Below are positions 1-33,102 of a stretch of DNA of 64,000 nt, piece after piece. Numbering within the stretch: the stretch's first letter is position 1; the number at the start of each line of letters is the position of its first letter. The notes under the pieces are model-generated. The model searched no databases. It worked only from the letters and a program-made list of their open reading frames with translations, and was not told the DNA's origin. This DNA comes from Methanomassiliicoccaceae archaeon COG_1 (GTDB lineage Archaea; Thermoplasmatota; Thermoplasmata; Methanomassiliicoccales; Methanomethylophilaceae), in assembly GCA_028561875.1 (NCBI GenBank), contig JAQQTI010000004.1:62001-126000 (forward strand), written 5' to 3'. A program made the position numbers and the translations under genes.

Positions 1-980
1 TGCTCTCCGCGGAGGGCAGGGACAGGGAGCTACTTTTCGAGAACGCAAGGGACGTCAGGGACGGGAAGTTCGGCGACAAGGTGTTCGCCTACGGCTTCGT
101 CTACTTCTCAACGTACTGCCACAACAACTGCACGTTCTGCTACTTCCGCAGGACGAACGGCATCGACCGCTACCGGAAGACGCCGGAGGAGATCGTCGAC
201 CTCGCCCTCGACCTGAAGGAGGAGGGCATCGACCTCGTCGACCTGACCATGGGGGAGGACGATCGGATGTACGGTGACGGCTTCTCCGGGCTCGTCGATA
301 TCGTCTCCCGCGTCCACGGCCTGGGGGTCTCCGTGATGGTGTCGCCGGGGGCGGTGGGCGAGGAGGCCATGCCGCGCCTGAAGGAGGCCGGCGCGGACTT
401 CTTCGCCGTCTACCAGGAGACTTACAACAGGGAGCTGTACTCCCGTCTCCGCCCGGAGCAGGACTTCGACTTCCGGTGCAACCAGAGGGCGTGGGCGAGG
501 GCGGCCGGCATGCTCACCGAGGACGGCATGATGGTCGGGCTCGGCGAGACCGTGGCCGACCGCGCCGACGCCATCCTCGCGATGTGCGCCGGGCCCTGCG
601 AGCAGATCCGCTGCATGACGTTCGTCCCGCAGACGGGGACGCCGCTGCAGAACCTCGAGCCGACGGGCTCCGGCATGGAGCTGAAGGCGATCGCCGCCAT
701 GAGGCTCCTCCGCCCGGACAGGTTCATCCCCGCGACCCTCGACGTCGAGGGCGTCGGGGGCATGAAGGCCCGCCTCGACGCGGGCGCGAGCACCATAACC
801 TCGATCGTCGTGCCGAGGAGGCACCTCGCCGGCGTGGCGCAGCCCGAGAAGGACATCGAGAGCGGTGCAAGGGGGGTCGACCACGTGTTCGAGCTGGTCG
901 ACGGGATGGGCAAGAAGGTCGCCTCGCAGAGGGACTTCTCCGCCATGCTCCGCCGGATGAAGGATGCCCTTCCGCGTCGA
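1..980 (+). CDS. pylB: PylB, 3-methylornithine synthase (5' end outside window)
   Basis: Radical SAM mutase that converts L-lysine to 3-methylornithine, the first step of pyrrolysine biosynthesis. The frame is already open at base 3. The 4Fe-4S motif CxxxCxxC appears as CHNNCTFC, followed by VDLTMGED and a TLDVEGVGGMKARLDAGA stretch, both characteristic of PylB. Roughly 40 N-terminal residues are missing. Similarity to known PylB ends near MGKKVASQRDFSAMLRRMKD. No standard stop follows until 1091, and the extra 37 codons would run through a TATA-like TTAAATA and low-complexity sequence. Two consecutive CGA codons lie at 978-983, exactly where the protein should end, and none occurs earlier, so I end the gene at the first. 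It shows that the host can make pyrrolysine. Confidence 0.92.
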
Positions 981-992
981 CGATTAAATACC
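979..992 (+). promoter_or_regulatory. TATA-like element after pylB
   Basis: GATTAAATAC lies directly behind the CGA CGA pair that closes pylB, about 105 bases before the first SMR gene. It has the look of an archaeal TATA box. Its place inside the standard-code extension of pylB argues that the extension is not translated. Inference from sequence only. Confidence 0.45.
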
Positions 993-1097
993 CGCTCCCC
1001 CCATCCCCGATGCGGTGTGCCGGCGGGTCCGTATCCGGCGGAGCGGGGCCGCCCGGCCCTCCTCCCCCGCAGGAGTCGGACCGCGGGTTGAATAAGC

Positions 1098-7572: not shown

Positions 7573-8931
7573 ATGAGGGAAGATCTCCACACCGAATTGA
7601 AACGCGAATGGAAGGACGAGTACCTTCGTAACGTTGCAGCTTTGGCAAACACCGAAGGCGGGACAGTCTATGTCGGGATCGATGACCGCGGTGACATCTA
7701 CGGGGTGGATAGGGTCGATTATCTTCTCAAAGCTCTGCCAGATAAGATTCAGAATATCCTGGGAATTGTCGCCGTTGTCGATAATCATGTCAAAGACGGT
7801 AAAGATTATCTGACAATCAACGTCAGCCCAAGTCCTGATACGGTTCTCTTGGATGGGAGGTTGTACGTAAAATCCGGGAGTACGGCCCGTGAGCTTCGCG
7901 GTGCGGAGATGAGGAATTTCCTCACCACGCGTGGGGATCTCGCTTGGGCAGATGAATCTGTGGATGTGGAACCTGAACAGCTGGACACCTATGCGTTCAG
8001 AGCATTCAAGAAGGCCGCTGTTTCAATGCGTAGGCTGACACAGGAGGAATCGGAACTTCCTATGGCGGATCTTCTGGGTAAATTGAATCTCATCAGGAAC
8101 GGCAAGCCTACCCGTGCAGCGATGATACTGTTCTCTCCCGATGCGGAGACCGTATCAGGTGCCGCAGGCATCAGGATATGCAAAGAAATCAATGGAGATA
8201 TAGAGTTCTTCGATGAAATCTATGGTCCGATGTTCCTCTCCGTCGATCGTGCTCTGGATCTCATTATGACCAAGTACACTGTAACCCCGATCACATACGA
8301 GGGTATCATCAGGGTCGAGAATTATCCTTACCCAAAGGATGCGATCCGTGAGGCGTTAATCAACGCAATCTCCAATGCGGATTACGGATGTACGTATCCG
8401 ATTAAGATCTCTGTACTTCCCGACAGGCTGATCATCCAGAATCCCGGAAGCCTTCCTTATGGTTATACGGTAGAGCAGATAATCAAGGGTCGCGTTTCAA
8501 AGCCCCGCAACCGCGGTATTGCGATGGTGTTCCGTACTGCAGGCATGTCCGAGGCCTTCGGACGCGGATTCGAGAAGATGAGTCTTCCTTACAGGGAACA
8601 GGGTGTTACCCTCCCAGAATACGAAGCTCTGCCACAGGACTTTCTGGCGATCTTCACCAATATAGTAGTGGCGAAAGGCATCGTGTCCAGGGACATGAAT
8701 GGGAAAGAGGTCACATCCAGCAGTAACATCGACATCACAGGAGAACTGACGGGGATAGAGCGTACTATTTTCGAACTGATTAGCAAAGGTGAATTCAGCA
8801 ACATCCGTGATGTTTCGACCAACCTTGGCACAACTCGGGCAGCAGTCGAAAAGGCATTGAAGACATTGACCTCAAAGCAACTGATCAAAAGAGAGGGCTC
8901 AACCAGATTCGGTTCATGGATTGTTGTATGA
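7573..8931 (+). CDS. AlbA_2 (Schlafen-like) domain protein with ATPase-like fold and winged helix
   Basis: 452 residues. The N-terminal AlbA_2/divergent AAA-4 domain is recognised by TELKREWKDEYLRNVAALANTEGG and the GxxDxG pattern VGIDDRGDIYGVD. The middle part carries the HATPase-like motif REALINAISNADY and ends with the typical GRGFEKM. The C-terminus is a winged helix (TTRAAVEKALKTLTSKQLI). Such proteins are common orphan regulators or defence-linked proteins in archaeal islands. The target is unknown. Codon use is AT-richer than the core, and no CGA codon occurs. Two decayed relatives of its C-terminus lie at 12419-12622 and 14563-14703. Confidence 0.8.
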   Translation: MREDLHTELKREWKDEYLRNVAALANTEGGTVYVGIDDRGDIYGVDRVDYLLKALPDKIQNILGIVAVVDNHVKDGKDYLTINVSPSPDTVLLDGRLYVKSGSTARELRGAEMRNFLTTRGDLAWADESVDVEPEQLDTYAFRAFKKAAVSMRRLTQEESELPMADLLGKLNLIRNGKPTRAAMILFSPDAETVSGAAGIRICKEINGDIEFFDEIYGPMFLSVDRALDLIMTKYTVTPITYEGIIRVENYPYPKDAIREALINAISNADYGCTYPIKISVLPDRLIIQNPGSLPYGYTVEQIIKGRVSKPRNRGIAMVFRTAGMSEAFGRGFEKMSLPYREQGVTLPEYEALPQDFLAIFTNIVVAKGIVSRDMNGKEVTSSSNIDITGELTGIERTIFELISKGEFSNIRDVSTNLGTTRAAVEKALKTLTSKQLIKREGSTRFGSWIVV

Positions 8932-8940
8932 TGCAACATC

Positions 8941-8990
8941 CATTGTCTGTCTCTGTCTGTCTCTGTCTGTCTCTGTCTGTCTCTGTCTGC
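8941..8990. repeat. Decamer tandem repeat (CTCTGTCTGT)
   Basis: Four near-perfect copies of CTCTGTCTGT plus one partial copy at the left start nine bases after the AlbA_2 gene. A tract of this kind is prone to copy-number slippage. It is not coding in any obvious frame. Confidence 0.9.
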
Positions 8991-9095
8991 ATCAATGCAC
9001 AATAGGTCATAGACTGTTTCTTTTAGACATCTTCCAAACCCAATTGACAATATTCTGTTTTCCAAATCGAACGCATTATATGTGAGAATGCGGGA

Positions 9096-9172
9096 GCGTA
9101 AGATATATGAAGACACGCGTTGGGAGGTGAATGGGCGGATGGCTTTTTCATTCCGCCGTATTATTGATGCAT
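9096..9172 (+). repeat. Dispersed element copy 1: TATA-like box plus hairpin
   Basis: An AAGATATAT box, AGACACGC, GGGAGGTG and then a stem GGCGGA/TCCGCC around a T-rich loop. The same order of blocks recurs at 12821-12896. It may be a small RNA unit or the end of a mobile element. No protein is apparent. Confidence 0.55.
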
Positions 9173-9233
9173 CTACTTCCTACCCTACTTCCTACCTGTA
9201 GCAGAACTTTCCCAGCTGACGACATTCAGTCTA

Positions 9234-10781
9234 TCATCGTTGCGTGATGGCAGTAGCCTCGGATGGGCTGTTCGACCTCTTTTTCCGCGGCTTCTTGTCC
9301 TTGCTTCCCTTGGGGCGTCCCGCCTTCTTCTTCGGTTCAAGCACCACTATAGGTCTATCTATCAATCCGAGTCTCGCCAGAAGATCCGAATCCTTCTCGG
9401 TGTACCTCTCGTTCTCCCATTCATCCCCATCCACCCTGGATTTCCTCTTGCATCTGAGCATATCCATGGTGTATCCGAACGGGACGGTCTCGAGTTCCTT
9501 CACCGCGCCGAAGGCGCGGAGAAGTCTCGACGTTAGTAGTGCCGATAGGAAGTTGACGAAATTGGTCGCAACCACGGAATAATCGGAATGCACACGGGTG
9601 TCGTCCAGGTCGAAATCGACCTTGTATGTGCGGAACATCAGTTCGATCAGCCATCTGTCGTCGTACATGGAGTACACCTTGGCGCAGTCCATGTCCCGAT
9701 CGGACTGGAAGACAACCGTGCCGAACTCCCTCTTCCGCAGTGCGAACTCTTCCGGAACGTAGCCTTCCTCGTGATGTTCGAGGTACAACCTCTCCTCATC
9801 GGCCGCGATCTCGGGGTCCCTGAACGAATACAACCAGCGTCCAGTCCCCGGTATCTCGGCCTTCTTGCACGAGACGGATGTGCCCTTCAGATGCGAATCG
9901 AAATCGTACATGCCGTATTCGGTTATGACGAGCTCATCCCTGTGCAGCGGGAGTATGTAATGCACGCCGTCCAGATCCTTCAACGCGGCTTCGATCGTAC
10001 CTATCCTGAATCCTTTGTCCGCTACGATCGTTCCGTGCTCTATCCCGAACGATCTGATGAAATCGGCGACGGCTCTGCCGTCGGTCATGTTGCCCGCATA
10101 CACCTTGGAGCATATGGGCTCATGCCTCTCGGAGCCATAGGCGTACATCATCAGATACTGCCTGGTCCCAGTCTTATACGTCTTCCTGGAAACCTGCGAG
10201 AGCGTGTTCACATCGCTCTCGCATTGCTGGAGCGACCCGTCGATGACCACTTCCTCGTCAATCGCTATGGTACCGACACGGGAACGCATGAAATCCCTGA
10301 TCCTGTTGCTTTCCCGCCCCACATCCTGCAGCTTCAGGCAGATGCTGTTCCTGCTCATCGGGACATCGGCATACATCTCCGACAAGAACGATTCCCGGTA
10401 CCTCCGTTGAATCTGGTAGTCCTTGACGTCAGGATAGCATGTGCGTATCACGCACATGCAGTACAGCCAGACGGCATCGTTGATCGAATAGAATGCGGTC
10501 AAATCCGACAGGACGTCCCTGAACACCATGTCGCACATGGCGACGTTTCCCCATTCCTTCGAATCTATCCGTCCCGGCGCTCCGACCGGCAGGGCGCCGT
10601 TCGAAGGGACGAACCCGCCGTTCACAAAATACCCCACGATGTCCCCGTCGACCACATGACGCTTCCCCTCATCGTCATACGTGTATCCACGCTTTTTCAC
10701 GGGATACATACCGTTCTTCCGGTAGACTACGACCGTGCCCGGAGGTCTCTCCATGTCGAGGATTTCGCGAGGTACTTTCAT
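9234..10781 (-). mobile_element. IS4/IS1634-like transposase
   Basis: 515-residue DDE transposase. The catalytic core shows the first Asp in TIAIDEEVVIDG (about residue 175), the second in IVADKGF (about 250), and the YREK signature of the IS4 group in YDDRWLIELMFRTYK (about 390). The C-terminus has an AT-hook-like GRPKGSKDKK and a basic tail. The gene is intact, starts at ATG and ends at TGA, so the element may still move. I could not identify clear terminal inverted repeats or a target duplication. An inverted repeat lies at 10817-10837, upstream of the gene. Confidence 0.88.
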
Positions 10782-21802: not shown

Positions 21803-24559
21803 ATGAAAGGACAGGTAAGGCCGTTAGCTTATTCCGAACTGTCCGTGTCCACTCTTTCATTGTGGGCCAAGGTATCGAACACTGAGAGCTCGGCGGATTG
21901 GCTTCCCCTGATTATCCATCATTCGGACACTTCGCTCATCATAGAGCACCTTTGGAACACGTGGCTGTCCCCCAGTGACATATCTGTCATATAGAAGGGG
22001 ATAAGATCCAAATGTTCGGGCAAGGTCGGAGAGGCGCGGAAATTGGCAATATTCCTAGCCGCCGTGCATGACGTCGGAAAGGCGTCTCCGGTATTCCAAT
22101 ACGGGGAGATATTCCAGAACAAGTCGATAGAGAATTAGATAGAGGATAGGCTAGCTTCATGCGGGTTTCCGAGGCACATCACTGAGGGTAGCATCCATCA
22201 CTCGCTCGTTTCGGGAGCGGTCCTCGAAAAATATGGAATCGATAGGACCATATCTGTAATCGTAGGGGGCCATCACGGCAAACCTCCGGAGAATCGGCAT
22301 TCCACGTTGGACAGATGCAAGTTCGATAAGAACAAGACCGGGTGGGGGGATTCGGAGTGGATTTCGGCGAGGGCGGAGATTTTGGGATTCGCTCTGCATT
22401 TATCCGGTTTATCTTTAGACGAGCTTCGCGATATAACGCTTAGTGTCCCGGCGCAGGTGCTACTCACAGGCCTGCTGATTATGGCGGACTGGATTGCAAG
22501 CAATGAATCATATTTCCCTTATAAAGAGGAATTCATTGATTATGGGAACAAGCTCAGGAATAGAGTGGACGGCGCTTGGGAGTTGCTCGGAAGCCTGTCT
22601 AAATGGGAGCCAGACATTGGCTCTTCCGAATTAGTAATTAACAGGTTCAAGCTAGCACCGAGACCCTTCCAAAAGGACGTCGAGTCGATAGCTAGGGCTC
22701 ATCACCCTGAACTCATGATAATTGAGGCTCCTATGGGCGAGGGAAAGACAGAGGCGGCTCTGGTGGCAGCGGAGGTTTTAGCATCGGAACACGGAAAGAC
22801 TGGGTTAATGTTCGCTCTCCCGACCCAGGCCACGTCGGATGGAATGTTTCCTCGCATACGCGAGTGGGTGAAGAAGGCGGTGCACCCGGAAGAAGGGGAG
22901 GAATACTCTATATTGCTCGCGCATGGAAAATCCAGATTCAACAGAGAATACAAATCTATAAGAAGGGGGAATTGGAACGTCAATTCAGAGGATACTGTGA
23001 TCATAAAGGAATGGTTTACCGGCCGGAAAAAGGGCCTCCTTTCCGATTTCGTCATAGGGACGGTGGACCAGGTGCTTATGGTTGGATTGAAGCAGAAGCA
23101 TTTGGCGATGCGCCATCTGGGCCTTTCTAACAAGATTGTCGTCATAGACGAATGCCATGCGTATGATGTGTACATGGGCAGCTACCTGGAGACCGCACTT
23201 TCATGGCTAGGAGCTTACGAGGTTCCCGTGATTCTTCTCTCGGCCACTTTGCCACCTCGGAGGAAATTGGAGCTGGTCGAGGCATATCGCGGGACGAACC
23301 GCGTAAGCTATCGTGATGTTTTGCTTCCGGAATGGGCGGAGGATATCCGCTATCCGCTCATAACATATCTCGAAGAGGATACTATCCGTAATTCTGCGCC
23401 TAAGGCATCAGGAAGATCGATGGATGTCAAAATATCAGCAATCACTGATGGAAAGATCGTAGAGGTTGCTGAAGACGCGGCCGCCGATGGAGGATTCATA
23501 GCTATTATCGTGAACACGGTGAAAAGGGCCCAGCATATCGCATCTCTGTTAGCCGAACGTAGCGGATGGGGATGCGTTTGGCTCCTTCATTCGAGGCTTA
23601 TAGCACTCGACAGAGTCGAACGTGAATCGGATGTTATGAATATGTTGAACACTGGGAGCAGGACGGAGTTCGCTAATAGGTTATTCGTCGTCGGGACTCA
23701 GGTCATGGAGCAATCTCTTGACCTAGATTTCGATGCGATGATTACAGATTTGTGTCCCGTTGATCTTCTGTTGCAGCGCATGGGCCGTCTTCATAGGCAC
23801 TCTGAACGTCGGCGCTCGAAAGCCAATGAAAATCCCAAGTGTTTTGTTGTGGACGGCCCGGAGAAAGAGTTTCCGGAGGGATCCAAGGAAGTCTACGGAG
23901 AACTTCAGTTATTAAACACTAGGATGCTTCTGCGTGGAAGGAGTACCATCAGAATTCCGGGAGACATTCCTTGCATGGTTCATGAGGCATACGGTGGACA
24001 CATCAAAGTTCCCAAGGATATTGAAAACGAATATCGGAAGGCAGAGAAGGAGGCTGAAGTTGTGAGGAGCAGAAAGGAGATGAAAGCCGAAGCCTTTCAA
24101 ATAAGGACTCCGAAGAATGTGAGCGGACATTGTCTTACAGGTTGGTTAAATACAGATGTAGCTGACAACGAAATAAAAGCCGAGGCTTCAGTGCGTGATG
24201 CCAATGGGGCACTTGATGTGATTGTTATCAGAAGACTGAGGGATGGCTCGCTGCATATGCTTCCGTGGATTATGGGAGGGAGAGAAATCCCTCAGGATAA
24301 GATACCTTCTGACATAGCTTTTGTCATATCTGAATGCAAGGTGTCTCTGCCTGGAACTTTCGTCAATCCGGGTAGCATCGATGACTCAATTGGCCGTCTG
24401 GAGAAGTCGAATACTCAGATGCTGAATATAAGGAGGTGGTACGAGTCGGAATGGCTCAATGGGGAGCTTTTCCTAATTCTGGACGAGAACATGGAAAGCA
24501 GGCAACTCTCGAAAACGGTGAGATACGACCGCAATTTGGGACTGCAGGTGGTAAATTGA
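21803..24559 (+). CDS. cas3: Cas3, type I-E HD nuclease-helicase, with two in-frame TAG codons
   Basis: 918 sense positions if both TAG codons (21992-21994, codon 64, and 22136-22138, codon 112) are translated. The HD domain is then complete: DWLPLIIHHSDTS, FLAAVHDVGKASPVFQ (about codons 85-100), IHHSLVSG and GGHHGKPPE. The helicase follows without any frame break: Walker A APMGEGKTEAAL (about 308), DEAH-type VIDECHAYD, SATLP, and QRMGRLHRH. Cas3 nicks and degrades the DNA strand displaced by Cascade. The length fits I-E Cas3 (about 890-940). A standard-code caller would see a 63-residue ORF and a 750-residue ORF starting at TTG 22307 without most of the HD domain. In a pylB-carrying host, TAG may be read as pyrrolysine. 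The alternative is a young pseudogene. Confidence 0.88.
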
Positions 24560-26145
24560 AGGATAAAGAATTCAATCTTCTGGATGAGCCGTGGATAGTC
24601 GTCTTGAGCAGAAACGGAACGATTGAAACAATTGGGTTAAAGGAAGTTTTTCAGCGGGCAGACGAGTTCGAAGGACTCGCAGGAGATTCTCAATGCCAAG
24701 ACATAGCAGTGATGCGTTTCCTATTGGCTATTTTATATGCAACACATTTACGCGCTCCCTCATCTGTTTCGAAGACTTGCTCGGAAGAAGCGACCATAGA
24801 TAGATGGAAATCTATCTGGGAGAAGGGGAATTTCAAGGACGGCACGATATCTGACTATCTTGAAGGGCAGAGGGATCGCTTTTGGCTTTTTCATCCAGAT
24901 TTTCCGTTCTTCCAATCGATTGTCGATAAAGGTACCAAGTACGATGCGAACAAACTGATTGGAGATCTTTCGGAAAGTTCAAACAAGCCCCGTCTGTTCT
25001 CCAATTACGGGGGAGTATCGAAGAGAGTCATATCATATGGAGACGCAGCACGCTGGCTTCTGTATATCAATGGATTTGATGATACATCGGTAAAACCCAG
25101 TGTGAGGAAGGCGGGCCTTTCATCTACCGGGGTTGGATGGCTAGGTAAGTTGGGCCTCGTATACATCAAAGGAAGGAATCTGTTTGAAACCCTCACGTTG
25201 AACTTTGTTCTTACCGACCACAAGGGAGAGCCGTTTCCAGATGGAAAAGCTATATGGGAGAGGTCTCCGACATCGGAAGAGAGAGTGGAAATCGCACTTC
25301 CAAGAAGTCCCATTGAGCTTTTGACTATGCAATCTCGCCGGATTCTTTTGAACAGAAATGACGGTGGAGTAACTGGCTTCCTTTCATTGGGAGGGGATAT
25401 CGTACGGAAGGAGAACGCATTCACCGAACAGATGACCCTTTGGGAAAGGACCGATGATGGTAGTTTTGTACCAAAAAGACATGATCCATCAAAGTCTGCA
25501 TGGCGTGATTTCTCTGCGATAATTGCGGGAAGCGAGGAAAACAGACTTCCTGGCACCATATGTTGGTCCAAAACCCTTGAGAATGAGGGAATATTCCCAT
25601 ACGATGTGGCCAATTTTTGCATCGTAGGCGTTAAGTACGCCGAAAAAGGTTCCTGTGCCGAAGATACGATTTCGGATAGCATATCTCTGAACTCCAAGCT
25701 ATTGTCTGAGCTAGGGAATGGATGGAACGCGAGAATTTCCGAGCTGTTGACTTTGACAGAGAAAAGTGTTAGGGCCCTGGCCTCTTTCGCCAAGGACCTT
25801 TGCGAACTGAACGGTTATAATCGCAATAAAGACAAAAAAATTATGGACGAGGTCGAATCAAAGGTGTCGTTGCAGGCGTTTTTTAATCTTGACGACCCGT
25901 TCCGCCACTGGCTTTCATCCATAGATCCAGAGGGCTCTGATTCTGATAGCAAAAGCGCCGACTGGAAGAACACGGTTTATTTCGCGGTAGTCGAAAACCT
26001 GGGGCATGAAATGTTAGAAGACGCCGGAATCAAGGCATTCGTGGGCAGGGCCGATTCTAAAGTGGCTATGAAAAACAATGTGTTCTCCAAGTTCTCCAAG
26101 TTCCGTAACACCGTGATAAAGATATTGAAAGAAGGCAAGTCATGA
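24556..26145 (+). CDS. cas8e: Cas8e (Cse1), Cascade large subunit
   Basis: 529 residues from TTG 24556, which overlaps the cas3 TGA as TTGA. The N-terminus KEFNLLDEPWIVVL is the typical Cse1 start. Later come WLFHPDFPFFQ and RSPIELLTMQSRRILL, typical of the family. Cas8e recognises the PAM and recruits Cas3. The stop overlaps the cas11 ATG. No internal TAG or CGA seen. Confidence 0.92.
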   Translation: MKDKEFNLLDEPWIVVLSRNGTIETIGLKEVFQRADEFEGLAGDSQCQDIAVMRFLLAILYATHLRAPSSVSKTCSEEATIDRWKSIWEKGNFKDGTISDYLEGQRDRFWLFHPDFPFFQSIVDKGTKYDANKLIGDLSESSNKPRLFSNYGGVSKRVISYGDAARWLLYINGFDDTSVKPSVRKAGLSSTGVGWLGKLGLVYIKGRNLFETLTLNFVLTDHKGEPFPDGKAIWERSPTSEERVEIALPRSPIELLTMQSRRILLNRNDGGVTGFLSLGGDIVRKENAFTEQMTLWERTDDGSFVPKRHDPSKSAWRDFSAIIAGSEENRLPGTICWSKTLENEGIFPYDVANFCIVGVKYAEKGSCAEDTISDSISLNSKLLSELGNGWNARISELLTLTEKSVRALASFAKDLCELNGYNRNKDKKIMDEVESKVSLQAFFNLDDPFRHWLSSIDPEGSDSDSKSADWKNTVYFAVVENLGHEMLEDAGIKAFVGRADSKVAMKNNVFSKFSKFRNTVIKILKEGKS

Positions 26146-26729
26146 TCAAAAAAACAGAAATCTGCAATTTTGTGGGTCTGAAGATTCACGAACTTCAGAG
26201 CAGGTCGCCATGGTCGGTGGCCGCACTGGCAAGGCTTCGTAGAGGCGTCGGGAAGAACATCGAAGACGTGCCTGATTCGTGGGAGATCGTCCTCGGGAAC
26301 ATTCCTGATAATCTTCTACCCAGAGGGTCTGATCCAGGAAGGGAACTCAAAGCAACCTACGTCGCATTGTGCCTGTTTGCCATGCATCAGCAGGGCGAGG
26401 AAAAATCAGTCCATGATTCGGGCAAGTCCTTTGCTATGGCAGCTCGTGCGATTATCGATTCGAATAACGAGAATGCTGTCAAGAGGCGTTTCGACTCCGT
26501 GATTACATCTGAAGACCTGTCGGAGTTGAGTAATCATGCGCGGGGCCTGATTCAAATAATGAAGGCTAGTGGCAGGTTTATCTCATTTGATTATATGCGG
26601 TTCGCAGCCGATTTATATGACTATCAGTTCGACTCAGGAAAGAGCCGCGTCCGTATTAGGTGGGGGATGGACTTCTACAAGGCCACAGAGAAAAACAATT
26701 TGAGAAGCGAAGAAGAGAAATACGACTGA
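26142..26729 (+). CDS. cas11: Cas11e (Cse2), Cascade small subunit
   Basis: 195 residues, all helical in appearance, with SVAALARLRRGVGK near the N-terminus, the conserved basic patch of Cse2, and ALCLFAMHQQG. Two copies normally line the Cascade belly and stabilise the R-loop. Starts inside the cas8e stop (ATGA). Confidence 0.9.
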   Translation: MIKKTEICNFVGLKIHELQSRSPWSVAALARLRRGVGKNIEDVPDSWEIVLGNIPDNLLPRGSDPGRELKATYVALCLFAMHQQGEEKSVHDSGKSFAMAARAIIDSNNENAVKRRFDSVITSEDLSELSNHARGLIQIMKASGRFISFDYMRFAADLYDYQFDSGKSRVRIRWGMDFYKATEKNNLRSEEEKYD

Positions 26730-26745
26730 GAATGGAGAAATTGGT

Positions 26746-28539
<1,794 letters not shown>

Positions 28540-28543
<4 letters not shown>

Positions 28544-29187
28544 TACATCTTTCACGCGTGGAGATTAATCTGCGGCGTTTTGAGACCATGAAGGCCCTGT
28601 CCTCGCCTGAGATAATGCACGCAGCTGTCATGTCCTCTTTCCCCGCAATGTCGGAGGACAATCGTCCGCTGTGGAGAATCGATGGGGTCGGTGAATGCGT
28701 ATACATTATTGTGCAGAGTCGGACGAAACCAGATTTCACACATATTGTAGAGCAGTTCGGCTGGCCTGCATCCAATCAGAAGTGGGACAGTTTGGATTAT
28801 GGGCCATTTCTCTCGAGAATCGAAGAGGGGAAGGTATATAGGTTCCGTCTGAGGGCAAACCCGACCAAATCGGTTTGGAATGGCGTCAAGGGATCGAGGG
28901 GGAAGGTCTGCGATCATATCACGGCCGAGCAGCAGTTGCAATGGCTGAGGACCAAAGCCGGACGCTGCGGGTTCTCGATATCGGAAAGGGACACTACAGG
29001 TGCCAGTATAGTCAAGAGAGAGGTTCTCAGGTTTAAGAGCAAGGGAAACAGTGTTACGATATCCGTTGTAACCTTCGAAGGCTTTTTGAAGGTAACCGAT
29101 AGAGAGGCATTTCTAAAGAGTATAGAATGCGGGATTGGCCGTGCGAAGGCATACGGTTGCGGTATGCTGTCAGTATCTAAGTTGTGA
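28540..29187 (+). CDS. cas6e: Cas6e (Cse3), crRNA endonuclease
   Basis: 215 residues with HLSRVEINLRR at the start and the glycine-rich RNA-binding loop GIGRAKAYGCGMLSV at the end. Processes the leftward array transcript at the base of the repeat hairpin. ATG overlaps the cas5e TGA. The family's catalytic His near the N-terminus may be the one in PEIMHAAVMSSF. Confidence 0.92.
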
Positions 29188-29191
29188 TACG

Positions 29192-30130
29192 ATGAACGGT
29201 GCGGGGAAATCATCACTCCAAGAGCTTCCTAGAATCAGAGATAGACTTTCCTTTCTTTATGTGGAGCACTGTGTAATAAACCGCAGTGACAGTGCAATCT
29301 CGGTCACGGATGTGAAAGGGGTTACAAACATTCCTGTGGCAATAATTGGCGTTCTACTAATCGGGCCCGGTTCGAATGTGACGCATAGGGCGATGGAGCT
29401 CCTCGGGGATTCTGGGGCATGCGTCATGTGGGTTGGAGAGAAGGGGATCCGCTGCTATTCATGTGGAAGACCCCTCACCCATTCCTCTCGTCTTCTGGAG
29501 ATACAGGCACGTAAAGTCTCCAACATCCATTCTCGCCTGGCTGTCGCCAGGAGGATGTATGAGATGAGGTTCCCCGGGGAGGATTTCTCCAGAATGACTA
29601 TGCAGCAGCTCCGTGGGCGTGAAGGGTCCCGTGTGCGTTCCGCTTATAAGAAAGCCTCAAAGGAGACAGGCATATGGTGGAGCGGAAGGAATTACGATCC
29701 AAACGATTTTGATTCCGGTGATGTGGTGAATCAGGCGCTTTCGGCAGCGAACGTTTGTCTATATGGTATTGCTCACTCAGTCATCGTGGCCCTGGGTTGT
29801 TCTCCTGGTCTGGGTTTCATTCACACGGGACACGACAGATCGTTCGTTTACGATTTGGCGGACATCTACAAGGCAGACCTATCAATCCCTCTGGCTTTCA
29901 GGATTGCTAAGGAAGGTCACGAGAGTATCGGATCGGCGGTCCGCCGTGCGTTCCGCGATGAGGTCGCAAATAGTAGTCTTATGGTGAAGATGGCCCATGA
30001 CATTATAGAGTTACTAACCGAGGGAAAGTATGATGAGGCGGACCCTGCTTCTAACGACATCTTCTTATGGGACAACAAAGAGGGAAATGTTTCTGCGGGG
30101 GTGTCATATCGCGAAGGTGAGACTTTTTGA
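29192..30130 (+). CDS. cas1: Cas1e integrase
   Basis: 312 residues. The metal-binding residues are visible: Glu in GREGSRVRSAYKKA, His in GFIHTGHDRSF and Asp in VYDLADIYKADL. It joins new spacers to the leader end of the array with Cas2. Starts four bases after the cas6e stop and ends in TTGA, overlapping the cas2 TTG start. Confidence 0.95.
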   Translation: MNGAGKSSLQELPRIRDRLSFLYVEHCVINRSDSAISVTDVKGVTNIPVAIIGVLLIGPGSNVTHRAMELLGDSGACVMWVGEKGIRCYSCGRPLTHSSRLLEIQARKVSNIHSRLAVARRMYEMRFPGEDFSRMTMQQLRGREGSRVRSAYKKASKETGIWWSGRNYDPNDFDSGDVVNQALSAANVCLYGIAHSVIVALGCSPGLGFIHTGHDRSFVYDLADIYKADLSIPLAFRIAKEGHESIGSAVRRAFRDEVANSSLMVKMAHDIIELLTEGKYDEADPASNDIFLWDNKEGNVSAGVSYREGETF

Positions 30131-30921
30131 TAGTGGTGTCACTTTCATCCATTCCTTCGTCTCTGAGGGGGAGTCTGACAAGATGGCTCTTCGAGATAGA
30201 TACAGGAGTCTTTGTAGGGCGCATCTCTGCTCGTGTACGCGATGAGTTATGGAATCGCATAGAACGCGAGTGCGGAGACGGACAGGCGATAATGGTGTTC
30301 GGAGTTGATTCCGAACAAAGGTTCGATTTTCGTACTCACAACTGTAGTTGGGAATCCGTCGATTTGGATGGCATCAAAATAATGAGACGTCCTTTTCCAA
30401 ATAATACGGTGTTTTCGGAATCCAAAACAGGATTCAGTAAGGCTAGCAATTATCGGAAGGCCAGACAGTTCATCGGTGCGAAAACAAAAGACAGTGCCAC
30501 ATTTGCATTTGCGTCTGTGCTAGGGAATGAAAACAGTACCATAATAGTGAGCTATGAGATATACAACAATGAGGGTCTCGTGGTAACAGGTTTCGACAGT
30601 AGTCAATGCATAACGTTCACCGATAAAAAGGAATTTTTGATAAAAATGGTTACAAGGATTGAAGGACAGCGCGTTATCATGGAGAACTCGGATGCAATTA
30701 AGAGACTATTTTCGGAACTCGCGTCTAAAGGAGTTGACATGTCCAAATTGAGTCTTTCAAGCCTCAAATCCATGGCAAAGATGAAACTGCCTGAATTAAG
30801 AAAGCATGATGTCCACTCGCTCTGTGATTATTTCGGTATTGTTAATCAACACTCAAAATCCCTCTGTGAGATTATGTCGGAAGTTTATTTCAAGATGATA
30901 AAAATCGAAAAAAGATTTTGA
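30127..30921 (+). CDS. cas2: Cas2e fused to a degenerate DnaQ-like domain
   Basis: 264 residues. The first 95 are a normal Cas2e (SIPSSLRGSLTRWLFEIDTG, FVGRISARVRDELWNRI, DLDGIKIMRRP). A further 170 residues follow. Their spacing resembles the DEDDh exonuclease of known Cas2-DnaQ fusions: ATFAFASVLGNEN where FDxETTG would be, MENSDAIKRLF where HNxxFDxxFL would be, then LSSLKSMAKMKLPELRKHDV and YFGIVNQHSKSL. All three acidic motifs appear lost, so exonuclease activity is unlikely. The domain assignment is my inference from pattern. Start TTG overlaps the cas1 stop. Confidence 0.8.
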   Translation: MIVVSLSSIPSSLRGSLTRWLFEIDTGVFVGRISARVRDELWNRIERECGDGQAIMVFGVDSEQRFDFRTHNCSWESVDLDGIKIMRRPFPNNTVFSESKTGFSKASNYRKARQFIGAKTKDSATFAFASVLGNENSTIIVSYEIYNNEGLVVTGFDSSQCITFTDKKEFLIKMVTRIEGQRVIMENSDAIKRLFSELASKGVDMSKLSLSSLKSMAKMKLPELRKHDVHSLCDYFGIVNQHSKSLCEIMSEVYFKMIKIEKRF

Positions 30922-31082: not shown

Positions 31083-32261
31083 ATGTATCTATCTCGCGAA
31101 GAGCAGGCCATCCTCGACGGGGAGATGGGCGCCGGCGCGCAGAAAGCGATGGAGCTGGTCACCGCGCTCGGCAAGGTCTACGGGGCCGACGGCCTCGTGG
31201 ACATCACCTCCGCGCACCTCTCGGGCGCGTCCTACAAGACCATCGGGGAGGGCGGCCTCAGGTACCTCTCCGACATGGCGGAGGGGGGCGCGAAGGTCGC
31301 TGTCAGGGCCACCCTCAACCCCGTCGGCATGGACCGCGAACGGTGGAGGGAGATGCACATCCCCGAATCCTTCGCGGCGAAGCAGAACGAGATCGTCCGC
31401 CTCTACGGCAGGATGGGCGTCGATACCGCCTGCACGTGCACGCCGTACCTCGGCGCCAACGTCCCCGCCCTCGGCGACCACGTCGCGTGGGCGGAGTCTT
31501 CCGCGCTGTCCTTCGTGAACTCGTACATCGGGGCGCGCACCAACCGCGAGGGCGGGCCGGGCGCGCTCGCCGCCGCGATCCTGGGGAAGACAGCCAACTA
31601 CGGGCTGCACCTGGACGGGAACAGGCGGCCCACCTTCATCGTGGATGTCGAGGCGTCCGTGGAATCGGTGTTCGACCACTCCGTCCTCGGCGAGGCCGTG
31701 GGCATGGCGATGGGCGGCGGCGTGCCGTACTTCCGCGGGATATCCCCGGCGGTGGATGATGCCAAGGCCCTCGGCGCGGCGATGGCCGCGGCCGGCGCTG
31801 TCGCCCTCTGGCACGCGGAGGGGTGCACCCCCGAGGCGGGGAGCGCCGACGTCTCCGGCCTCGAGAGGATCGGCATCGGCAGGGAGGAGATGAGGGCGGC
31901 TTACGAGAGGCTCAATACCGCCGACGACGTGCAGCTCATCGCCCTCGGCTGCCCGCACCTGTCCCCGAAGGAGATACACGACATCGCCATGCTTCTAAAG
32001 GGCAAGGAGAGGAGGAACAGGGACGTGGAGATATGGTTCTGCACCTCGGCGAAGGCCCGCGCGGAGTGCGCCGACGACGTGAAGGTCCTGGAGAGGTTCG
32101 GCCCGGTGCTGGCCGACACCTGCATGGTGGTCGCGCCCATCGAGGGGGCGTTCCAGCGCACGGCCACGAACTCCGCGAAGGCGGGGAACTACCTGCCCAC
32201 GCTGTGCTCCCAGAGGGTCATGTTCGACGACGTCTCCGCGCTCCTGAGGGTGATAGAGTGA
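31083..32261 (+). CDS. Aconitase X-type phosphomevalonate dehydratase, large subunit
   Basis: 392 residues of the AcnX/DUF521 family: LVDITSAHLSGASYKTIG, ACTCTPYLGANVP with the cluster-binding cysteines, AESSALSFVNSYIGARTNREG and IALGCPHLS. With the DUF126 subunit it dehydrates 5-phosphomevalonate in the archaeal modified mevalonate pathway for lipid synthesis. ATG at 31083 is preferred because a TATA-like CGCTATAAC lies about 30 bases upstream. The open frame upstream lacks coding character. TGA overlaps the next ATG (TGATG). Confidence 0.9.
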   Translation: MYLSREEQAILDGEMGAGAQKAMELVTALGKVYGADGLVDITSAHLSGASYKTIGEGGLRYLSDMAEGGAKVAVRATLNPVGMDRERWREMHIPESFAAKQNEIVRLYGRMGVDTACTCTPYLGANVPALGDHVAWAESSALSFVNSYIGARTNREGGPGALAAAILGKTANYGLHLDGNRRPTFIVDVEASVESVFDHSVLGEAVGMAMGGGVPYFRGISPAVDDAKALGAAMAAAGAVALWHAEGCTPEAGSADVSGLERIGIGREEMRAAYERLNTADDVQLIALGCPHLSPKEIHDIAMLLKGKERRNRDVEIWFCTSAKARAECADDVKVLERFGPVLADTCMVVAPIEGAFQRTATNSAKAGNYLPTLCSQRVMFDDVSALLRVIE

Positions 32262-33034
32262 TGATGAAGGGGCGCGCCATATCCGGCGGGAGGGCCGAGG
32301 GGGTCGCGATAACCTATCCCGAGGCGTTCAGCTTCCTCGGGGGCGTCGACGGCAGGACCGGGGAGCTCATATCCAGGGACGGGAACATCGGCGGCAGGGT
32401 CTTCCTCTTCCCGAAGGGGAAGGGCTCGACCGTCGGGTCGTACGTGGTGTACGACCTCAGGGTGAGCGGGCACGCGCCCGCCGCCATCGTAAACCGGACG
32501 GCGGAGACCATCGTCACCACCGGCGCGGTGATCTCCTCGGTGCCGATGGTCGACGGTATCGACGTATCGATCGTCAGGGACGGCGACGTCCTCGCCGTGG
32601 ACGGCGACGCCGGCACGGTGGAGATCAAAGGCGTCGAGGAGCGCCACGTCGCGACGGCGATGGTCGCCGTCGACGGGAAGGTGCTCCTACTCCGCAGGCC
32701 GGAAGGCGCCCGCTCGTTCCCGGGCGGATGGTCCCTCGTGTCGGGGGGCGTCGAGGGGGACGAGACCCCCCTGGAGGCCGCCCGCCGCGAGGTGAGGGAG
32801 GAGACCGGCATAGCGGTCGGCATGCCCGACGGCAGCCTGCCGGAGTTCCGCATCCGCGAGGGGGGGACGGTGTGGGTAGTGCACCCGGTGCTGTTCCGCC
32901 TCGAGGAGGCAGAGGTCGCGCTCAACGGCGAGAACGCCGCCTACGAGTGGCTGCCCGCCGCCGAGGCCGCGGCCCGCGAGGGGCTGGTCGACGGCGTCGG
33001 TGACGTGATAGAGGGGTTCGCGAAGCTCCTGCGA
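32261..33034 (+). CDS. Phosphomevalonate dehydratase small subunit (DUF126) fused to a Nudix hydrolase
   Basis: 257 residues. Residues 1-125 are the swivelling DUF126 subunit (GRAISGGRAEGVAITYPEAF, GSTVGSYVVYDL, AETIVTTGAVISSVPMVDG). Residues 130-257 are a Nudix domain with the box GGVEGDETPLEAARREVREE followed by TGI. No stop codon of any type separates them, so this is a real fusion. The Nudix part may act on an isoprenoid or nucleotide diphosphate. The protein ends at CGA 33032 after GFAKLL. The standard frame would add three codons and end in TAG. Confidence 0.88.
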
Positions 33035-33102
33035 GGCCCCCGGTAGCGCCATCCTACCCGTGGATTCGAACGGTGAGCGCGGTCTCCCGCCCGGTTCCGC
33101 AT

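What the first reader, a model, noticed from the sequence alone, without database searches (positions are those of the whole stretch)
21803..22320. Two in-frame TAG codons inside an otherwise intact Cas3 HD domain
TAG at 21992 and 22136 interrupt cas3, yet the frame, all HD motifs (HHSD, VHDVGK, IHHS, GGHHG) and the helicase are preserved, with no TAA, TGA or frameshift. The host carries pylB. The simplest reading is that TAG is translated, presumably as pyrrolysine, giving a CRISPR nuclease that depends on the Pyl system. Pyl-dependent proteins have classically been methylamine methyltransferases. Genome-wide TAG reading has been proposed for some Pyl archaea.
Basis: partly seen in the sequence, partly recalled or inferred. 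Interest (0 to 1): 0.93.

Follow-up and report, generated by a model that had tools for sequence, protein, structure and literature searches.

The report
Pyrrolysine codons inside a CRISPR nuclease
In a gut-type methane-producing archaeon, the CRISPR nuclease gene cas3 (and its partner cas5) contains 'stop' codons that the cell most likely reads as the rare amino acid pyrrolysine, so its virus defence probably depends on the pyrrolysine machinery; a similar case was predicted in a relative in 2014.

Summary
In detail: cas3 (21803-24559, 918 codons) has exactly two in-frame stops, TAG at 21992 and 22136, with HD, helicase and C-terminal domains intact. The genome carries a complete Pyl cassette: pylT(CUA), pylS, pylC, pylD and pylB. 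The single-copy pyrE also has a TAG, at a column where 12 congeners have Glu or Lys. Across 16 aligned Cas3 proteins of the order, five carry internal TAGs (8 in all), every one in a PylS-positive genome. None has an internal TAA or TGA, and the TAGs sit in unusually variable columns (P about 0.003), the mark of a sense codon rather than decay. Best reading: TAG is translated as pyrrolysine, giving full-length Cas3 and Cas5. TAG is NOT clearly depleted as a terminator here (about 8-10% of gene ends, against 10-14% in Pyl-negative relatives), so it is dual-use, not wholly reassigned. Pyl in Cas1 of 'Ca. Methanomethylophilus alvus' was predicted in 2014 (PMC4153887), so this is a new member of a known kind. 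Incorporation itself is not shown: no proteomics.

The parts
21803..24559 (+). cas3 (type I-E, HD nuclease-helicase), 918 aa when TAG is read as a residue; ends TGA
   Evidence: Pfam Cas3_HD 21-238, DEAD, Cas3-like_C_2, Cas3_C; NCBIfam cas3_core 209.6 bits and cas3_HD 69.6 bits over cut-off; solved relatives 4q2c, 4qqw, 6c66
21992..21994 (+). in-frame TAG, Cas3 codon 64 (variable column: E/V/S/C/A/K in relatives)
22136..22138 (+). in-frame TAG, Cas3 codon 112; the Cas3 of G107 (another genus of the family) has a TAG in the same alignment column
24556..26145 (+). cse1/casA, no internal stop, ends TGA
   Evidence: TIGR02547
26142..26729 (+). cse2/casB, no internal stop, ends TGA
   Evidence: TIGR02548
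26746..27822 (+). cas7e/casC, no internal stop, ends TGA
   Evidence: TIGR01869
27824..28543 (+). cas5e/casD, 239 aa when TAG is read as a residue; ends TGA
   Evidence: TIGR01868 161 bits, one stretch 3-205 across the TAG
28163..28165 (+). in-frame TAG in cas5e; five close relatives have Glu or Asp in this column
28540..29187 (+). cas6e position in the operon, no internal stop, ends TGA (identity from position; not scanned)
29183..30130 (+). cas1e, no internal stop
   Evidence: TIGR03638
30127..30921 (+). cas2e with C-terminal extension, no internal stop
   Evidence: TIGR01873
17008..20940 (+). CRISPR array: 65 repeats of 28 bp, 64 perfect, 64 different spacers (63 of 33 bp, one of 34)
1..1091 (+). 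pylB (runs off the left edge; the rest of the Pyl cassette, pylT-pylS-pylC-pylD, lies on contig C1)
   Evidence: TIGR03910 395 bits

Best explanation
The two TAG codons of cas3 and the one of cas5e are sense codons here: tRNA-Pyl (anticodon CUA), charged by PylS with pyrrolysine made by PylB, PylC and PylD, reads them, and full-length Cas3 (918 aa) and Cas5e (239 aa) are made for an otherwise intact type I-E system. They most likely arose as single-base changes (for example Glu/Lys/Gln codons to TAG) at positions that tolerate a large side chain, and persist by near-neutral drift because the cell always has some Pyl-tRNA. Shown: TAG-only interruption, intact frame and domains, complete Pyl cassette, recurrence in other Pyl-positive Cas3 genes, preference for variable columns, TAG in the only pyrE. 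Inferred: that the residue is pyrrolysine, that read-through is efficient enough, that the nuclease works. TAG also still ends genes, so translation competes with aRF1 and Cas3 yield should scale roughly with the square of read-through efficiency.
For: Complete cassette: pylS E 3.7e-78, tRNA-Pyl CUA next to it, pylB 395 bits, pylC 332 and pylD 173 bits over cut-off. Two mtmB genes read through TAG (PF05369, profile 1-450) as internal positive control. pyrE: one match over cut-off in the genome, with 1 TAG; 13 congeners have a pyrE without stops, and 12 aligned have E (10) or K (2) at that codon in an otherwise 67-76% identical protein. Cas3: internal TAG in 5 of 16 aligned, all in PylS-positive genomes, no internal TAA/TGA; columns less conserved than TAG-reachable residues, P 0.0034. 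Domains cross TAG in HsdR, an SNF2-type helicase and PyrE. The array is in good order.
Against: TAG is not clearly depleted as terminator: 51 of 508 calls, about 40 of 497 without internal ones, against 9.6-13.6% in three Pyl-negative relatives; Pfam domains finish before the TAG in many genes. aRF1 looks canonical (GGQ, ASNIKS and YxCxxxF). No special RNA structure downstream of the TAGs (z -0.31, -0.97, 0.04). Three TAG of three in the operon alone has P about 0.1. No expression data.
Confidence: 0.8

Rival explanations
1. cas3 (and cas5e) are recently inactivated: the TAGs are nonsense mutations in a decaying interference module, spared further damage by lack of time.
For: TAG still ends many genes here, so the codon can stop translation. 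Three TAG of three by chance has P about 0.1. A congener, G010, has a truly broken cas3, cut by an IS-type transposase insertion, so loss happens in this genus.
Against: No TAA, TGA or frameshift in eight cas genes. Same TAG-only pattern in four other Cas3 genes, all Pyl-positive. TAGs avoid conserved columns, P 0.003. TAG in single-copy pyrE shows the codon is passed in this cell. 64 perfect repeats.
Confidence: 0.12
2. TAG is read through, but by a near-cognate or another suppressor tRNA, inserting Gln, Tyr, Lys or a mixture rather than pyrrolysine.
For: The residue is not observed; near-cognate decoding of UAG is known in general (own knowledge).
Against: A dedicated tRNA-Pyl CUA, PylS and the biosynthetic genes are present, and mtmB genes use TAG in the same genome. 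Internal-TAG Cas3 occurs only in PylS-positive genomes, 5 of about 21 against 0 of about 10 (small numbers).
Confidence: 0.05
3. Translation stops at the TAGs and an internal start yields a helicase-only Cas3' without the HD nuclease.
For: The open frame after codon 112 is 806 codons long, and separate Cas3' and Cas3'' exist in other subtypes (own knowledge).
Against: HD motifs on both sides of and between the TAGs are kept; no separate HD gene is seen in the operon; in G107 a TAG lies inside the helicase itself.
Confidence: 0.02
4. Sequencing or assembly error.
For: The window comes from a genome assembly of unknown depth, 86% complete.
Against: Three substitutions all to TAG and none to TAA/TGA or indels; same kind in other genomes.
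Confidence: 0.01

Closest known systems
Predicted Pyl-containing Cas1 of 'Ca. Methanomethylophilus alvus' (PreFran-type locus), and 15 other non-methyltransferase Pyl proteins (Borrel et al. 2014, PMC4153887)
   Same: Same order; CRISPR gene with in-frame TAG in a Pyl-decoding methanogen; homologues without TAG elsewhere; incorporation unproven
   Different: Here the effector nuclease Cas3 has two TAGs and Cas5e one, in a type I-E system; and TAG terminates about 8-10% of genes, against 1.6% reported for M. alvus
Methylamine methyltransferases MtmB, MtbB, MttB
   Same: In-frame TAG read by the same tRNA-Pyl; two mtmB genes of this genome match the full Pfam profile across the TAG
   Different: There the Pyl is a conserved active-site residue (own knowledge); in Cas3, Cas5e and PyrE the TAG sits at variable columns with no catalytic role expected
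Type I-E Cas3 of solved structure (4q2c; 4qqw/6c66)
   Same: HD-helicase architecture, aligned across both TAG codons
   Different: Two TAG codons in the HD domain
Archaeal 'Pyl code' with all TAG codons as Pyl (Kivenson and co-workers; from memory, not in the held library)
   Same: TAG read as sense in many ordinary genes of Pyl-decoding archaea
   Different: This genome keeps TAG as a frequent terminator, so it does not fit a full reassignment

Membership tests
Type I-E CRISPR-Cas system | cas3, cse1, cse2, cas7e, cas5e, cas6e, cas1e, cas2e operon beside a 28-bp repeat array | tested here: met
   NCBIfam matches over cut-off for cas3 core and HD, cse1, cse2, cas7e, cas1e, cas2e and cas5e; cas6e by position only; 65 repeats, 33-bp spacers
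HD-type Cas3 nuclease-helicase | HD domain motifs, DEAD helicase and C-terminal domain in one frame | tested here: met
   Cas3_HD 1-207 of 207, DEAD, Cas3-like_C_2, Cas3_C, only if TAG is read as a residue
Pyl-decoding organism | pylT, pylS, pylB, pylC, pylD all present | tested here: met
Pyl-encoded protein | in-frame TAG with conserved sequence on both sides and no other stop | tested here: met
Pyl-encoded protein | pyrrolysine found at the TAG position in the protein | not testable with these tools
   needs mass spectrometry
Full TAG reassignment ('Pyl code') | TAG strongly depleted as a gene terminator | tested here: not met
   51 of 508 gene ends TAG (about 40 of 497 after removing internal ones), Pyl-negative relatives 9.6, 13.6 and 11.8%; Pfam-complete genes ending in TAG. 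Sampled 684 kb; the simple gene caller admits some shadow ORFs
Pseudogene | mixed stops, frameshifts, stops indifferent to column conservation | tested here: not met
   TAG only; variable columns, P 0.003
PYLIS-type recoding element | stable RNA structure just downstream of TAG | tested here: not met
   z-scores -0.31, -0.97, 0.04; not required for Pyl insertion according to PMC9499178

The most novel reading that the evidence does not exclude
CRISPR interference in this archaeon is gated by pyrrolysine supply: because Cas3 needs two and Cas5e one TAG read-through in competition with aRF1, full-length effector is made mainly when the Pyl cassette is active (methylamine growth), tying antiviral defence to the growth substrate; other defence genes with internal TAG (HsdR, a PLD/SNF2-type anti-phage-like gene) would follow the same switch.
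Probability: 0.1. Interest if true: 0.8.

Novelty: new member of a known kind. Interest (0 to 1): 0.5.

Why it matters
It extends pyrrolysine from methyltransferases to the destroying nuclease and a Cascade subunit of a type I CRISPR system, and shows the same pattern in several Cas3 lineages of the order. It also gives a clean natural test case: a genome in which TAG both ends genes and sits inside a single-copy housekeeping gene (pyrE), so the competition between aRF1 and tRNA-Pyl can be measured. Standard gene callers will report such cas3, cas5 and pyrE genes as broken, so CRISPR and completeness surveys of these methanogens may be biased.

Tried and rejected
PylS N-terminal model (TIGR03912) found nothing: this order is known to have a PylS without that domain, so the C-terminal model was used. 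A first codon-usage gene caller was swamped by shadow ORFs at 61% G+C; k-mer and seeded versions were better but still admit some shadows, so terminator counts are given as approximate and checked with Pfam. A TAA/TGA control for in-frame disruptions gave candidates which, by eye, nearly all look like neighbouring genes in the same frame with their own start; this was not tested one by one. RNA structure after the TAGs: nothing. dN/dS on cas3 was not attempted because the closest relatives are only about 45% identical; on pyrE, dN was below dS on both sides of the TAG, with dS near saturation.

Full report
What is there. The window lies in an archaeal genome (G000, 1.51 Mb in 6 contigs; window = C4:62001-126000). 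A type I-E cas operon (21803-30921, +) follows a CRISPR array of 65 repeats, 64 of them perfect, with 64 different spacers. cas3 runs from ATG 21803 to TGA 24559 and holds exactly two stops, TAG 21992 (codon 64) and TAG 22136 (codon 112). Read through, it is a complete Cas3: the Pfam HD domain matches as one stretch over its whole profile across both TAGs, and helicase and C-terminal domains follow; it aligns with solved Cas3 proteins through both sites. No TAA, TGA or frameshift occurs in the eight cas genes, and all eight end in TGA.

Is the decoding machinery there? Yes. pylS (TIGR02367, E 3.7e-78), tRNA-Pyl with anticodon CUA just upstream of it, pylC and pylD downstream lie on contig C1; pylB lies at the left edge of the window. 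Two mtmB genes next to pylT match the full MtmB profile across a TAG. One aRF1 over cut-off, with canonical motifs, is present.

Is TAG translated in this cell? The best witness is outside the CRISPR locus. The genome has one orotate phosphoribosyltransferase gene over the family cut-off, and it has a TAG at codon 81. The 13 other genomes of the genus each have one pyrE without stops. In 12 aligned, the column is Glu (10) or Lys (2), and the protein is 67-76% identical to ours, conserved on both sides of the TAG. A de novo pyrimidine gene without a second copy is unlikely to be dead. TAG also lies inside matched domains of HsdR, an SNF2-type helicase with weak similarity to a PLD-type anti-phage protein, and PyrE, and inside Sel1-repeat, PPK2-type and AAA_14/DUF4143 genes.

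Is it decay? In 16 aligned Cas3 proteins of the order, internal TAGs occur in five (G000 two, G107 two, G012 two, G115 one, G133 one), all in genomes with PylS; no internal TAA or TGA was found. In Pyl-negative G048 a TAG stands where the conserved protein ends, as a terminator, and in Pyl-negative G020 one stands before the start. The eight TAGs sit in columns with mean top-residue frequency 0.27, against 0.46-0.48 for columns holding TAG-reachable residues in the same proteins (P 0.0034; grouped residues P 0.0045). Nonsense mutations would be blind to column conservation; missense changes are not. One column (codon 112 here) carries TAG in both G000 and G107 at 41% overall identity; alignment gaps beside it leave open whether this is shared descent or coincidence. 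A truly lost cas3 looks different: in congener G010 a transposase gene interrupts it.

Is TAG reassigned genome-wide? Not clearly. In 684 kb of this genome TAG ends 51 of 508 called genes, about 40 of 497 once internal TAGs are set aside. Three Pyl-negative relatives give 11 of 114, 14 of 103 and 11 of 93. Many TAG-ended genes have a Pfam domain that finishes before the TAG, among them fumarase C-terminus, AIR synthase-related, MgsA, MMPL, CobB/CobQ, E1-E2 ATPase, diphthamide synthesis, AcnX/NUDIX, and pylS itself. The caller admits some shadow ORFs, so the numbers are approximate, but the value is far from the 1.6% reported for 'Ca. M. alvus' (PMC4153887). TAG is therefore ambiguous here, set by competition between aRF1 and Pyl-tRNA; PMC9499178 describes that model.

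How it most likely works. Ribosomes translating the cas operon mostly or partly insert pyrrolysine at the three TAGs and make full-length Cas3 and Cas5e; termination at the TAGs yields useless 63- and 111-residue Cas3 pieces and a 113-residue Cas5e piece. Cas3 is probably needed in small amounts, so modest read-through may do. The positions are variable, so Pyl probably has no special role and the TAGs persist by drift. A side effect, perhaps used by the cell, perhaps not, is that interference depends on Pyl supply. All of this paragraph is inference.

Novelty. Pyl in a Cas protein was predicted in 2014 (Cas1 of 'Ca. M. alvus'), and genome-wide Pyl use in archaea has been proposed since (own knowledge; not in the held library). 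New here are the effector nuclease with two TAGs, Cas5e, the recurrence across Cas3 lineages with the column-bias test, the TAG in single-copy pyrE, and the lack of clear terminator depletion. This is a new member of a known kind, with good indirect evidence and no direct proof.

Noticed in passing
   Followed up: yes
L107:11756-12292 (G000:C3:151777-152262 region): Single-copy pyrE with a TAG at codon 81, a column that is Glu or Lys in 12 congeners: strong evidence that TAG is passed in this cell.
   Followed up: yes
L029:9458-10354: pylS itself ends in TAG, with a longer C-terminus than in congeners, whose pylS ends in TGA; two pylS of another family in the order also end in TAG. Possible self-limiting read-through of pylS; untested.
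   Followed up: partly
L004 / L015 (G010:C1:526111-533467): In a congener, cas3 is interrupted by a transposase gene within the HD region: a real case of cas3 loss.
   Followed up: partly
L101:14297-17335 (-), L103:15475-18027 (+): Other defence-type genes of this genome, a type I restriction HsdR and an SNF2/PLD-type anti-phage-like gene, also carry one in-frame TAG inside a matched domain.
   Followed up: partly
L098:2050-3580 and 8863-10393: Two apparently identical gene segments about 6.8 kb apart (same scores and positions): a recent duplication or repeated element.
   Followed up: no
window 32258-33046: AcnX swivel domain fused in frame to a NUDIX domain, ended by TAG with a TGA nine codons on.
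   Followed up: no
G000 as a whole: Completeness is only 86% although the genome is in 6 contigs; TAG-interrupted marker genes may lower the estimate.
   Followed up: no
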